This document shows, in pieces, positions 54,288 to 59,137 of a DNA stretch of 64,000 nucleotides; positions within the stretch are counted from its first letter, which is position 1; each line of letters opens with the position of its first letter. The stretch lies in the NCBI GenBank assembly GCA_947474645.1, contig CANJJD010000002.1, positions 1 through 64,000 on the forward strand. Direction: 5' to 3'. Source of the stretch: Alphaproteobacteria bacterium (lineage in GTDB: Bacteria > Pseudomonadota > Alphaproteobacteria > Micropepsales > Micropepsaceae). Both the position numbers and the translations under genes were made by a program. The notes beneath the pieces are model-generated. The model saw nothing but the letters and a program-made list of their open reading frames with translations, had not been told where the DNA came from and searched no databases.

Positions 54288-54323
54288 GTTCATATTTTGA
54301 ACGTTGACGTTCATTCAATGAAC
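54288..54323. promoter_or_regulatory. Double-palindrome operator-like element, copy 1
   Basis: GTTCA-TATTT-TGAAC-GTTGAC-GTTCA-TTCAA-TGAAC; 46 bp upstream of regulator gene. Confidence 0.8.
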
Positions 54324-54368
54324 GATTAGCGTTCGGCCCGGGTAACGGCCTTACAAAAACAAAAGAAC

Positions 54369-54998
54369 ATGCAACGCGACGGGGATCAGTCCCGCATCAT
54401 CCTGGATATCCTGGAGTCGGTGGACCGTGACGGGATCCGGCCGCAGCGCAGCCGCGCTTCGGAAGTCGGGATCGCGCTGGGCCTGGTCAATGCCTATCTG
54501 AAGGTCTGCATCCACAAGGGCTATCTCAGGGCCCGCAAGATTTCCCCCCGCACCTACCAATACATGCTGACCCCGACCGGTTTCGCCGAGAAGTCGCGGC
54601 TGGCCCTGTCGCGTCTGTCCACGGCGCTGGATTTCCTGCACGACGCGCGCGTCTCCTATGCCGTGCTGTTCGCCCAGGCGCAGGAGCGTGGCTGGCGCAG
54701 CGTGGTCATCATCACGGCCTCCCAGTTGGCGGAGATTTGCGCCATCTGCGCCCTGGAACACGATATCCGCATCGTCGCCATCGTGGATGCCGGCGCGAGC
54801 AAGGAGCGCATGCTGGGCGTGCCGATCCATGGCGGCTTTGAGACCGTCACGGAAGATTTTGATGGCGCGGTGATCTGCGATCTGGGCGACCCCGGCAATA
54901 CCCGCGACAGCGCCATCGCGCTTTTGGGCGCCGACCGGGTGATGACCCCGGCATTCCTCAATATCGCCCCGCGCGCGGTGCCGGAGGCGGCGCAATGA
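54369..54998 (+). CDS. Winged-helix transcriptional regulator with C-terminal Rossmann-like domain (copy 1)
   Basis: MQRDGDQSRIILDILESVDRDG...QRSRASEVGIALGLVNAYLKVCIHKGYLRARKISPRTYQYMLTPTGFAEKSRL; C-terminal GWRSVVIITASQLAEICAICALEHDIRIVAIVD. Confidence 0.75.
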   Translation: MQRDGDQSRIILDILESVDRDGIRPQRSRASEVGIALGLVNAYLKVCIHKGYLRARKISPRTYQYMLTPTGFAEKSRLALSRLSTALDFLHDARVSYAVLFAQAQERGWRSVVIITASQLAEICAICALEHDIRIVAIVDAGASKERMLGVPIHGGFETVTEDFDGAVICDLGDPGNTRDSAIALLGADRVMTPAFLNIAPRAVPEAAQ

Positions 54999-55029
54999 GT
55001 GTCACCATTGCCATCAGAGAGAACCTGCA

Positions 55030-56634
55030 ATGTCCCATGTAAGGAAGGTTCTTTTCTTTTCTCCTTTCGCTTTCACTTGGGCACAGATTGTACCCGAGTT
55101 TCAGCTTGCACAACTGCTCCACGCAGAAGGCTTCCAAGTTAAAGTAATCGGTTGCCGCCGATCGTATTCTACTCGATGCACCTCCATGGAGGTAGCAAGG
55201 CTTCCCACAGATGCAAATGAGAGGGAAAGGGAAAAAGTCTGTAAAAAATGCATTTCGAATAGCCGCTTACTTGCAGAATCCTTTAGTGAAATTCAGTTTT
55301 CTCCAATTGAAGCTTATTCCGATGACCGCAACACAAGTTCAAATCTGGCACCTGAAATACCTAAAACGCCCGAAGAGATTTTGGGCTATTCGCGGGACGG
55401 AATAAAACTCGGACGCCTCGCGCTCTACGAAACAGTGATCAAGTTCAAAAAATTCAACGTGGAGCTTAATCCAATTGAGCGGCGATATTTTGAAATGTTT
55501 TTCTTGAGCGCCCTTAAGGTTTTAGATCAGGCGGCAACCGCCCTACGAACGGAAAAACCAGATGTGGTGATTTGCTATAGTCCCCAATACGTCATTCCCG
55601 GAATTTTCGCCGCCGTTGCGGCAAGGGAAGGAATACGAACGATTTTTATCGAAGGCAGTTCCAACGATATGGAGCGTCACTCGCATCTAAGAATGTGGGA
55701 TTGGAAGACACACGGACTTAACCAGCCCGCTCTTGCAGTGCCCGAGAGGTTCGAATCATTTAAACTGACAACAAGCGGCACAGCCCGGGCCAAACGACTG
55801 ATGGAAGTTAGGCAAAACGCGTCAGCCCACTCTGCATATACGAGTGCTGCGAAAAACGCCTCTCCATTTGATGTTTTCCATCTCGACAAGAACAAAAAAT
55901 ATATCGTCCTAGCCATGAGCAGCTACGACGAAGTTTTTTCGGGATATGTTATCGAAAAGCTCCCCCGCGCCCGATTTGAAGGACGCGTTTTTAAAAACCA
56001 AATCGAATGGTTGCGGGAAACAATTGCGTGGATTTCTTCTCACGCTGAATTGCAGTTGGTGATACGCCCTCACCCTAGGGAATTTCCAAACAAGTGGGAG
56101 AACAGTTTCTCGCCCCATGTGAAAGAGTGGACTTCCGTTCTTGCGTCCTTACCCCCCAACGTGAAAGTTGACCCCCCGGACCTGAAGTTCTCGCTCTACG
56201 ACCATCTCGCGCATGCCGATGTTTTGATAACGGGTTGGTCGTCCGTCGGGGTTGAGGCCCTCTCCAAGGGTGTACCTGTTGTTACATACGACGAGGAATT
56301 GCCACCCTTTCCGAAATCGATACATTATTCTGGCACCTCTAAATCGGAGTATTTTAAAAATATTTTTCTGGCCTGCCAAGACATCGACCGGAACCGTCAC
56401 ATAGAAAATGCAACGAAATGGCTGGCTTACACCTCGGAGGTTGGGACGATAGAGACCGGAGGAAGGCTCGATGATCGCTTTAAAATTCTGGCGAAGCTAA
56501 ATATCAGAGGGCTTTTGAGACAAAGATTGCCGCGACGACTAGATTTATTTTTCCCCCCATCGAAGCGGGACATCAAAAGATTGCTTGACCTGGTTCAGGG
56601 AAAAGGGACGAGCCTCTTTGATTTACCAAAATAA
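55030..56634 (+). CDS. Capsule polysaccharide synthesis-type glycosyltransferase (KpsC/KpsS-like fold candidate), low GC
   Basis: LQLVIRPHPREFPNKWENSF...LAHADVLITGWSSVGVEALSKGVPVVTYDEELPPFPKSIHY; base composition visibly lower in GC than neighbours. Confidence 0.6.
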   Translation: MSHVRKVLFFSPFAFTWAQIVPEFQLAQLLHAEGFQVKVIGCRRSYSTRCTSMEVARLPTDANEREREKVCKKCISNSRLLAESFSEIQFSPIEAYSDDRNTSSNLAPEIPKTPEEILGYSRDGIKLGRLALYETVIKFKKFNVELNPIERRYFEMFFLSALKVLDQAATALRTEKPDVVICYSPQYVIPGIFAAVAAREGIRTIFIEGSSNDMERHSHLRMWDWKTHGLNQPALAVPERFESFKLTTSGTARAKRLMEVRQNASAHSAYTSAAKNASPFDVFHLDKNKKYIVLAMSSYDEVFSGYVIEKLPRARFEGRVFKNQIEWLRETIAWISSHAELQLVIRPHPREFPNKWENSFSPHVKEWTSVLASLPPNVKVDPPDLKFSLYDHLAHADVLITGWSSVGVEALSKGVPVVTYDEELPPFPKSIHYSGTSKSEYFKNIFLACQDIDRNRHIENATKWLAYTSEVGTIETGGRLDDRFKILAKLNIRGLLRQRLPRRLDLFFPPSKRDIKRLLDLVQGKGTSLFDLPK

Positions 56635-56647
56635 AAGCTCCGCTGCT

Positions 56648-56722
56648 GTGCAAACGCCGTCCACATCGCCCAACCCGTATCACGACTATCTGCGCGAAAC
56701 GGAAATCGAAAATAAGGCGTAA
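56648..56722 (+). pseudogene. Possible gene remnant (24 codons)
   Basis: VQTPSTSPNPYHDYLRETEIENKA* between two low-GC genes. Confidence 0.3.
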
Positions 56723-57826: not shown

Positions 57827-57905
57827 TGCTCTATTCCTTGAGCGCAATCCCATAGCATGCCCTAAAAACCGGCTCGAGACTTCAGCCTGGACTATCGCCT
57901 CCCGA

Positions 57906-58877
57906 TCAAACACCATAAAATTCGCGGTACCAGGCGATGAATTTCGGGATGCCGGCGCTGATCGGGGTGGTGGGCGCAAAGCCCAGGTCACGGGTGCTGG
58001 CGTCGATGTCGGCATAGGTGCGGGGCACGTCGCCGGCCTGGATCGGCTCCAATTGCACTTGCGCCTTGCGGCCCAGCGCCTTTTCGATCTCGCCGATGAA
58101 ATCGGTCAGCTTTTCGCTGCGATGGTTGCCCAGATTGTAAAGCTTGCAAGGCGGTTCGCCCGTCGCGGGGCGATCCAGCACCCGCACCACGCCATTGACG
58201 ATATCGTCGATGTAGGTGAAGTCCCGCCACATCTCGCCATGGTTGAAGACCTGGATCGGCTCACCGGCCAGGATGGCGCGGGTAAAGATGAACGCCGCCA
58301 TGTCGGGGCGGCCCCAGGGGCCATAGACCGTGAAGAAGCGCAGGCCCGTTACCGGAATCTTGTAGAGATGGGCATAGGTATGGGCGATCAGCTCGTCGGC
58401 GCGCTTGGTGGCGGCATAGAGCGAATTGGGCTTTTCCACCGCATCATCCACTGAGAAGGGCAACTCGGTGTTGCCGCCATAGACCGAGGATGAGCTGGCA
58501 TAGACGAAATGCTTGAGCGCCGGCAGCTTGCGCGCCAGTTCCAGCATCACCACCTGGCCCATGACGTTGGACGTCACATAAATATAGGGATCGACCAGCG
58601 AGTGGCGCACCCCGGCCTGGGCCGCCAGGTTGATGATCCCGGTGATGCCGGGAAACTCATCGGCCAGCGCCAGCACCGCCTCGCGGTCGGAAATGTCGAG
58701 CTTGCGAAAGCTGAAACCATCCAGGCCCGTCAGCGCTGCGAGCCGCGCCTCCTTCAAGCTGACATCGTAGTAATCGTTGAGATTATCAATGCCCAGCACC
58801 TTCTGGCCACGCGCCAGCAGGGCCTTGGCGACGCTGGACCCGATGAAGCCGGCGGCGCCGGTGACAAGAATAGTCAT
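57906..58877 (-). CDS. NAD-dependent epimerase, UDP-glucuronate 4-epimerase-like
   Basis: MTILVTGAAGFIGSSVAKALLARGQKVLGIDNLNDYYDVSLKEARL; AAQAGVRHSLVDPYIYVTSNVMG; VYGPWGRPDMAAFIF. Confidence 0.92.
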   Translation of the reverse strand: MTILVTGAAGFIGSSVAKALLARGQKVLGIDNLNDYYDVSLKEARLAALTGLDGFSFRKLDISDREAVLALADEFPGITGIINLAAQAGVRHSLVDPYIYVTSNVMGQVVMLELARKLPALKHFVYASSSSVYGGNTELPFSVDDAVEKPNSLYAATKRADELIAHTYAHLYKIPVTGLRFFTVYGPWGRPDMAAFIFTRAILAGEPIQVFNHGEMWRDFTYIDDIVNGVVRVLDRPATGEPPCKLYNLGNHRSEKLTDFIGEIEKALGRKAQVQLEPIQAGDVPRTYADIDASTRDLGFAPTTPISAGIPKFIAWYREFYGV

Positions 58878-58881
58878 GCCG

Positions 58882-58983
58882 CTACAGGCTCGGATAGGTC
58901 AGGCCGGCCAGCACTCGCGACGGCAACAGGCTGAGCGCCACGGGCAATCCCACATAACACAGACCGATAACGGCAATTCGCAT
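58882..58983 (-). pseudogene. Remnant of a nucleotide-sugar dehydrogenase gene (33 codons)
   Basis: MRIAVIGLCYVGLPVALSLLPSRVLAGLTYPSL*; matches the G-x-GYVGLPVA N-terminus of this family, then ends. Confidence 0.7.
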
Positions 58984-59101
58984 GCCGGTGCTTATAGCGG
59001 AAGGGATCCCCTCTATCCAGCAATTCCGGGCGCGCGCGGCGCCCTCCCGATTCCCGTCCAAACAAGCGAAAAGGCTGAAATCCCTATAAATTATTCATCA
59101 T

Positions 59102-59137
59102 GTTCATGTTTTGAACATTGACGTTCAGCACCTGAAC
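59102..59137. promoter_or_regulatory. Double-palindrome operator-like element, copy 2
   Basis: GTTCA-TGTTT-TGAAC-ATTGAC-GTTCA-GCACC-TGAAC; 46 bp upstream of regulator gene. Confidence 0.8.

What the first reader, a model, noticed from the sequence alone, without database searches (positions are those of the whole stretch)
54288..59137. Identical 36-bp double-palindrome upstream of two paralogous winged-helix regulators
54288-54323 reads GTTCA-TATTT-TGAAC-GTTGAC-GTTCA-TTCAA-TGAAC. 59102-59137 reads GTTCA-TGTTT-TGAAC-ATTGAC-GTTCA-GCACC-TGAAC. All four 5-bp arms, the N5 spacing, the total length and the 46-bp distance to the ATG are the same, while the second spacer differs at all 5 positions. 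Conserved arms with a diverged spacer are what protein-binding constraint predicts. The central TTGAC could be a -35 box embedded between the operator halves. I propose an autoregulated and/or cross-regulated pair controlling EPS expression.
Basis: partly seen in the sequence, partly recalled or inferred. Interest (0 to 1): 0.85.

Follow-up and report, generated by a model that had tools for sequence, protein, structure and literature searches.

The report
Conserved operator of polysaccharide-cluster repressor
The two look-alike DNA elements are twin docking sites, overlapping a promoter, for a gene-control protein that very probably controls its own gene and, with a partner elongation factor, a cell-surface polysaccharide cluster; the same site recurs in front of this protein's gene across Alphaproteobacteria and beyond, and I found no published description of it.

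Summary
In detail: GTTCA-N5-TGAAC-N6-GTTCA-N5-TGAAC occurs at 54288-54323 and 59102-59137, 45 bases before each ATG, and nowhere else in the 2.64-Mb genome (3 mismatches allowed). It is not "identical": 29/36 bases match (arms 20/20, spacers 4/10), while flanks match 42% and 27%. Comparative evidence makes it the operator of the downstream winged-helix regulator. Exact GTTCAN5TGAAC lies within 300 bp upstream of 70 of 98 alphaproteobacterial homologues (shuffles: mean 0.06) and of 12 short-form MarR_EPS homologues from other classes. Promoter-plus-operator (TTGACGTTCAN5TGAAC) occurs in 36/96 genomes with the regulator and 1/299 without. TTGACG is the probable -35; the right-hand palindrome fills the -35/-10 spacer, as a repressor site would. 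An arginine (R27) in the DNA-binding domain tracks the outer G of the arms. The regulator is usually followed by an RfaH-like gene, then often a hairpin + ops element (window 60338-60373) before polysaccharide genes. Best reading: an autorepressed (and cross-repressed) MarR_EPS-like regulator controlling initiation of an RfaH/ops-dependent polysaccharide module. Binding, sign of regulation and ligand are untested.

The parts
54288..54302 (+). Upstream operator dyad of regulator 1, GTTCATATTTTGAAC
54304..54309 (+). Probable -35 box TTGACG of regulator 1 promoter
   Evidence: site start is +5 from TTGAC in 48 homologous cases
54309..54323 (+). Core operator dyad in the -35/-10 spacer, GTTCATTCAATGAAC
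54327..54332 (+). Candidate -10 TAGCGT (weak, 3/6), spacing 17
   Evidence: inference
54369..54998 (+). Regulator 1: winged-helix MarR_EPS-like protein, 209 aa
59102..59116 (+). Upstream operator dyad of regulator 2, GTTCATGTTTTGAAC
59118..59123 (+). Probable -35 box TTGACG of regulator 2 promoter
59123..59137 (+). Core operator dyad in the -35/-10 spacer, GTTCAGCACCTGAAC
59142..59147 (+). Candidate -10 TATCTG (weak, 3/6), spacing 18
   Evidence: inference
59183..59809 (+). Regulator 2: winged helix (1-68), long helix (69-106), Rossmann-like domain (111-200), 208 aa
59806..60312 (+). RfaH/NusG-like elongation factor overlapping the regulator 2 stop codon
   Evidence: NusG PF02357 2e-22; TIGR01955 RfaH 126.9 bits, below cut-off 144.5
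60338..60373 (+). Hairpin TCGGGTGAA-GCGA-TTCACCCGA followed by ops GCGGTAGCGTG; probable RfaH recruitment site of the downstream genes
60401..61450 (+). PhyH-domain gene, first gene after the ops element
61288..63183 (+). ABC exporter ORF of the polysaccharide cluster (the listed start overlaps the preceding gene; true start probably later)
55030..56634 (+). Surface-polysaccharide (glycosyltransferase-like) gene following regulator 1

Best explanation
Each 36-bp element is a pair of binding sites (YGTTCA-N5-TGAACR) for dimers of the winged-helix regulator encoded 45 bases downstream, and by homology of its paralogue too. The sites are centred 21 bp apart, two helical turns, so two dimers would lie on one face of the DNA. 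The right-hand site fills the spacer between a TTGACG -35 and a weak -10, so a bound dimer would block RNA polymerase: the regulator most likely represses its own operon, and the shared operator lets either paralogue repress both. In the regulator 2 operon this sets the level of a co-transcribed RfaH-like factor, which would then be recruited at the hairpin+ops element just downstream and carry transcription into the polysaccharide genes. Shown: sequences, conservation, co-occurrence, promoter geometry, gene order. Inferred: binding, repression (rather than activation), cross-regulation, ops use, and an inducer (perhaps a nucleotide-sugar-like metabolite) bound by the Rossmann-like domain.
For: Exact site within 300 bp upstream of 70/98 homologues, against 0.06 in shuffles (<=1 mismatch: 86 against 0.8). 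TTGACGTTCAN5TGAAC: 36 of 43 places class-wide lie directly upstream of the regulator on its strand; 36/96 genomes with the regulator against 1/299 without, p=6e-24. Site start is +5 from TTGAC in 48 cases, with a second cluster at +26 to +29; site-to-site spacings are 21-25 (48 cases) or 31-34 (10), i.e. two or three turns. Outer G of the arms tracks Arg27: 67/67 Arg proteins keep it, 7/9 non-Arg do not, with symmetric ATTCAN5TGAAT in several. Short-form MarR_EPS of other classes have the site too (12 of 12 above the family cut-off). Confident wHTH model resembling MarR proteins and Sso10a. RfaH-like gene directly after most regulators. Operator + ops before polysaccharide genes at L151 and L153, and operator + ops at L152.
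Against: No binding or expression data. The Arg27 co-variation rests on only 2-3 independent events on the tree. The -10 boxes of the two window promoters are weak. A few distant homologues lack the site (L021, L104, L105, L107, L108; alphaproteobacterial short forms L163, L168, L171 and fused 600-aa forms). An upstream site just before the -35 could also suit an activator. The palindromes fold as RNA, though the core site lies upstream of the expected start.
Confidence: 0.83

Rival explanations
1. The regulator binds these sites but activates its operon (the upstream dyad recruits polymerase), or switches between activation and repression with a ligand.
For: In the window and nearest relatives (L008, L111, L112) one dyad sits just upstream of the -35; -10 boxes are weak.
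Against: The class-wide invariant position is the -35/-10 spacer, and the commonest second site is at or after the -10, both typical of steric repression.
Confidence: 0.15
2. The sites are bound by a different, conserved transcription factor that controls the regulator/RfaH operon.
For: No direct binding evidence names the binder.
Against: The promoter-operator is near-absent from genomes lacking the regulator (1/299 against 36/96), travels with it into other classes and changes its outer base with residue 27 of the regulator. Alphaproteobacterial LexA boxes are direct repeats (GTTCN7GTTC; general knowledge), not inverted ones.
Confidence: 0.06
3. The element acts as RNA (tandem hairpins in a leader) read by the RfaH-like factor.
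For: The 36-mers fold with z about -3; other NusG paralogues such as LoaP use RNA hairpins (general knowledge).
Against: In most homologues the core site sits in the -35/-10 spacer, hence untranscribed from that promoter. Arms are fixed letter for letter rather than only complementary. Site spacing follows the helical repeat. The RfaH-like factor has its own ops site downstream.
Confidence: 0.02
4. The likeness is leftover identity from a recent duplication, without function.
For: The genes are paralogues.
Against: Flanks are diverged (42% and 27%) while arms are 20/20; the paralogues group with different orthologues in other genomes (83 and 87% support), each with the same element.
Confidence: 0.01

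Closest known systems
TIGR04176 MarR_EPS (EPS-associated MarR-family regulator)
   Same: Homologous winged-helix domain; polysaccharide-cluster context; the same GTTCAN5TGAAC precedes many full members.
   Different: Window proteins score 39 and 48 bits, below the 88-bit cut-off, and carry an extra long helix and Rossmann-like C-terminal domain (about 208 aa; the model has 105 positions). No operator is described in the papers I could search.
Classical MarR-family autorepressors (e.g. MexR, HcaR, FabT)
   Same: Winged-helix fold; Foldseek matches; dyad operators overlapping their own promoter (general knowledge).
   Different: Different operator sequence; a Rossmann-like domain follows the winged helix and long helix; tied to an RfaH-like factor.
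RfaH cluster CL4 neighbourhood (Wang et al. 2020, PMC7593976)
   Same: That study reports that RfaH cluster CL4 is associated with an HTH regulator gene.
   Different: The section read gives neither operator nor promoter geometry; whether the window's RfaH-like protein belongs to CL4 was not tested.
JUMPstart/ops element (Rfam RF01707; Weinberg et al. 2010, PMC2864571)
   Same: ops core GCGGTAGCGTG with a stem-loop, in leaders of polysaccharide genes.
   Different: The hairpin TTCACCC-N5-GCGGTAGC here is not matched by Rfam at E<=5; RF01707 is listed for Gammaproteobacteria.

Membership tests
TIGR04176 MarR_EPS | Score above the curated 88-bit cut-off | tested here: not met
   39.2 and 48.4 bits: relatives, not members
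TIGR04176 MarR_EPS | Homologous winged-helix domain in an EPS gene cluster | tested here: met
   E 5.8e-10 and 7.7e-13; neighbouring polysaccharide genes
TIGR04176 MarR_EPS | Shared operator GTTCAN5TGAAC upstream (not part of the family's definition; tested as a link) | tested here: met
   12 full members from other classes carry it exactly; alphaproteobacterial L163, L168, L171 do not
MarR-type autorepressor | Winged-helix fold | tested here: met
   Model pLDDT 92.8; Foldseek to HcaR, MexR, PcaV, FabT
MarR-type autorepressor | Dyad operator overlapping own promoter | tested here: met
   By sequence and comparison
MarR-type autorepressor | Binding and repression | not testable with these tools
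   Needs EMSA and reporter assays
Alphaproteobacterial LexA (SOS) box | Direct repeat GTTCN7GTTC upstream of SOS genes | tested here: not met
   Sites are inverted repeats; genome-wide exact sites lie only at the two regulators plus two coding sequences
RfaH equivalog TIGR01955 (protein 59806-60312) | Score above 144.5 bits | tested here: not met
   126.9 bits: RfaH-like
RfaH equivalog TIGR01955 (protein 59806-60312) | ops site in a target leader | tested here: met
   GCGGTAGCGTG at 60363-60373, about 50 bp after the gene; class-wide co-occurrence p=4e-18

The most novel reading that the evidence does not exclude
A phylum-wide polysaccharide control module: one operator-bound repressor, whose Rossmann-like domain senses a nucleotide-sugar (or similar) building block, gates initiation, while the RfaH-like factor from the same operon gates elongation at hairpin-ops sites. 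Clusters would thus be opened only when precursor supply and elongation factor agree, with paralogue pairs sharing one operator to cross-wire neighbouring clusters.
Probability: 0.3. Interest if true: 0.7.

Novelty: new member of a known kind. Interest (0 to 1): 0.55.

Why it matters
It gives a concrete, letter-exact operator for a widespread but uncharacterised regulator family, with a built-in specificity prediction (Arg27 reads the outer G). It places the family at the head of RfaH-like/ops polysaccharide modules in Alphaproteobacteria, where an HTH-RfaH association was noted in 2020 (PMC7593976) without an operator. Regulons can now be read from genomes, and the model is testable with two proteins and short DNAs.

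Tried and rejected
LexA box: wrong repeat orientation, no other sites in the genome. RNA leader element: the core site lies in the promoter spacer and the arms are letter-fixed. Duplication remnant: flanks diverged, orthologues keep the element. A larger regulon in this genome: only the two promoters match exactly; weaker matches with 2-3 mismatches exceed the reversed-pattern control (76 against 21, overlapping copies included) but were not followed up. Extra exact promoter-operators in other genomes were checked: upstream of a polysaccharide synthase (L148), between an ABC exporter and a sulfotransferase (L149), RmlD (L151) and a nucleotidyltransferase (L153); L150 is cut by a contig end and the one in G459 looks like chance. 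PDB sequence searches gave no relative. Rfam gave only chance-level matches. The search for related loci in genome contigs found only one close relative. Literature searches found no description of the operator; most subscription papers are not covered.

Full report
OBSERVATION. Each is two perfect dyads GTTCA-N5-TGAAC, centres 21 bp apart, with TTGAC in the 6-bp linker, 45 bases before an ATG. They are not identical: 29 of 36 bases agree, with arms 20/20 but spacers 4/10, while flanks agree at 33/79 and 12/45. The double dyad with up to three mismatches occurs nowhere else in the 2.64-Mb genome. The exact single dyad occurs at only two further places, both inside coding frames. The genes are the only two homologues in the genome, 67% identical.

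WHAT IT IS. I searched 395 genomes of the class with regulator 2 and found a homologue in 96 (17 of 120 relatives). I fetched 98 distinct loci, found the regulator frame in each with a profile and read 300 bp upstream. The exact dyad is present in 70 of 98, against a mean of 0.06 in Markov shuffles; with one mismatch, 86 against 0.8. Among 113 exact sites, the N5 spacer carries at most 0.3 bit per position, with a mild Y/R preference next to the arms (arm positions are fixed there by the selection of exact sites).

PROMOTER GEOMETRY. The dyad begins 5 bases after the start of TTGAC in 48 cases, so TTGACG shares its G with the dyad and the dyad fills the -35/-10 spacer. A second cluster lies at +26 to +29, over the -10 and start; the window and close relatives have an upstream site instead, at -16 to -23. 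Neighbouring sites are 21-25 bp (48) or 31-34 bp (10) apart, i.e. two or three helical turns. TTGAC is a promoter element and not part of the operator: it keeps -35-like distances in loci where the dyad is elsewhere (e.g. L082, L088). The window's own -10 boxes are weak (TAGCGT, TATCTG).

WHO BINDS. Exact TTGACGTTCAN5TGAAC occurs in 37 of 395 genomes; 36 of those have the regulator (36/96 against 1/299, p=6e-24), and 36 of 43 places are directly upstream of it on its strand. The site also precedes 12 full TIGR04176 members from other classes of Pseudomonadota. In the DNA-binding domain, Arg27 (SQR motif at the start of the second helix) tracks the outer G of the arms: choosing sites by the inner bases only, 67 of 67 Arg proteins keep both outer bases, 7 of 9 others do not, several with symmetric ATTCAN5TGAAT. 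The tree counts only 2-3 independent events, so this is suggestive. Together these name the regulator itself as the binder; no binding was measured.

PROTEIN. AlphaFold2 gives a confident model (pLDDT 92.8): winged helix 1-68, long helix 69-106, Rossmann-like domain 111-200. Foldseek finds MarR proteins and Sso10a for the first part. For the C-terminal domain alone it finds UDP-glucose dehydrogenases, WbaP and CoA-binding domains with modest TM-scores (about 0.5-0.65). A weak NeuD-like sequence match points the same way. A nucleotide-sugar ligand is a guess from this.

CONTEXT AND MECHANISM. In most loci the regulator is followed within about 50 bp by an RfaH-like gene, as for regulator 2 in the window. 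Just after that gene lies a hairpin and ops (window 60338-60373, TTCACCCGAACTGCGGTAGCGTG), found at the same relative place in more than 20 loci. In the class, 31 of 34 genomes with it have the regulator (p=4e-18). Distal operators occur at polysaccharide genes, with ops in the leader at L151 and L153, and operator plus ops at L152. I therefore propose autorepression (and cross-repression) at initiation, coupled to RfaH-like control of elongation. Repression rather than activation is inferred from the site position.

KNOWN OR NEW. MarR-type autorepression is textbook, and the RfaH-HTH neighbourhood was reported (PMC7593976). The operator, its reach and the Arg27 correlation I did not find described in the papers searched. 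I call it a new member of a known kind: the mechanism is ordinary, while the regulon signal and its breadth are new to me.

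Noticed in passing
window 60338-60373: 9-bp hairpin plus ops (GCGGTAGCGTG) between the RfaH-like gene and the next gene of the polysaccharide cluster. A class-wide hairpin-ops element TTCACCC-N5-GCGGTAGC resembling JUMPstart but not matched by Rfam here.
   Followed up: partly
window 54369-55030: Regulator 1 is not followed by an RfaH-like gene, although its nearest relative on the tree (G048, L111) is, 5 bp downstream; it is followed instead by a surface-polysaccharide gene.
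   Followed up: partly
L155 8588-10240 (genome contig C2 about 71587-73239): A close paralogue of window gene 55030-56634 lies about 8 kb beyond the window and holds a probably chance exact dyad inside its coding sequence.
   Followed up: partly
window 54251-54272: Perfect 8-bp inverted repeat TAGTAAAA-CCATGT-TTTTACTA about 15 bp upstream of the regulator 1 operator; not seen at regulator 2. Unexplained.
   Followed up: no
L173-L184: MarR_EPS-like domain inside frames of about 600-700 aa in one alphaproteobacterial family (f22); these lack the operator.
   Followed up: no
L079, L087, L088, L091, L092, L094, L097, L099: A clade with mostly small genomes uses an asymmetric GTTCT-N5-TGAAC site just after a TTGAC-type promoter.
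   Followed up: partly
L189 (Aliarcobacter butzleri plasmid): A MarR_EPS gene of Campylobacterota with a one-mismatch dyad 45 bp upstream, next to a predicted tet(H) gene.
   Followed up: no
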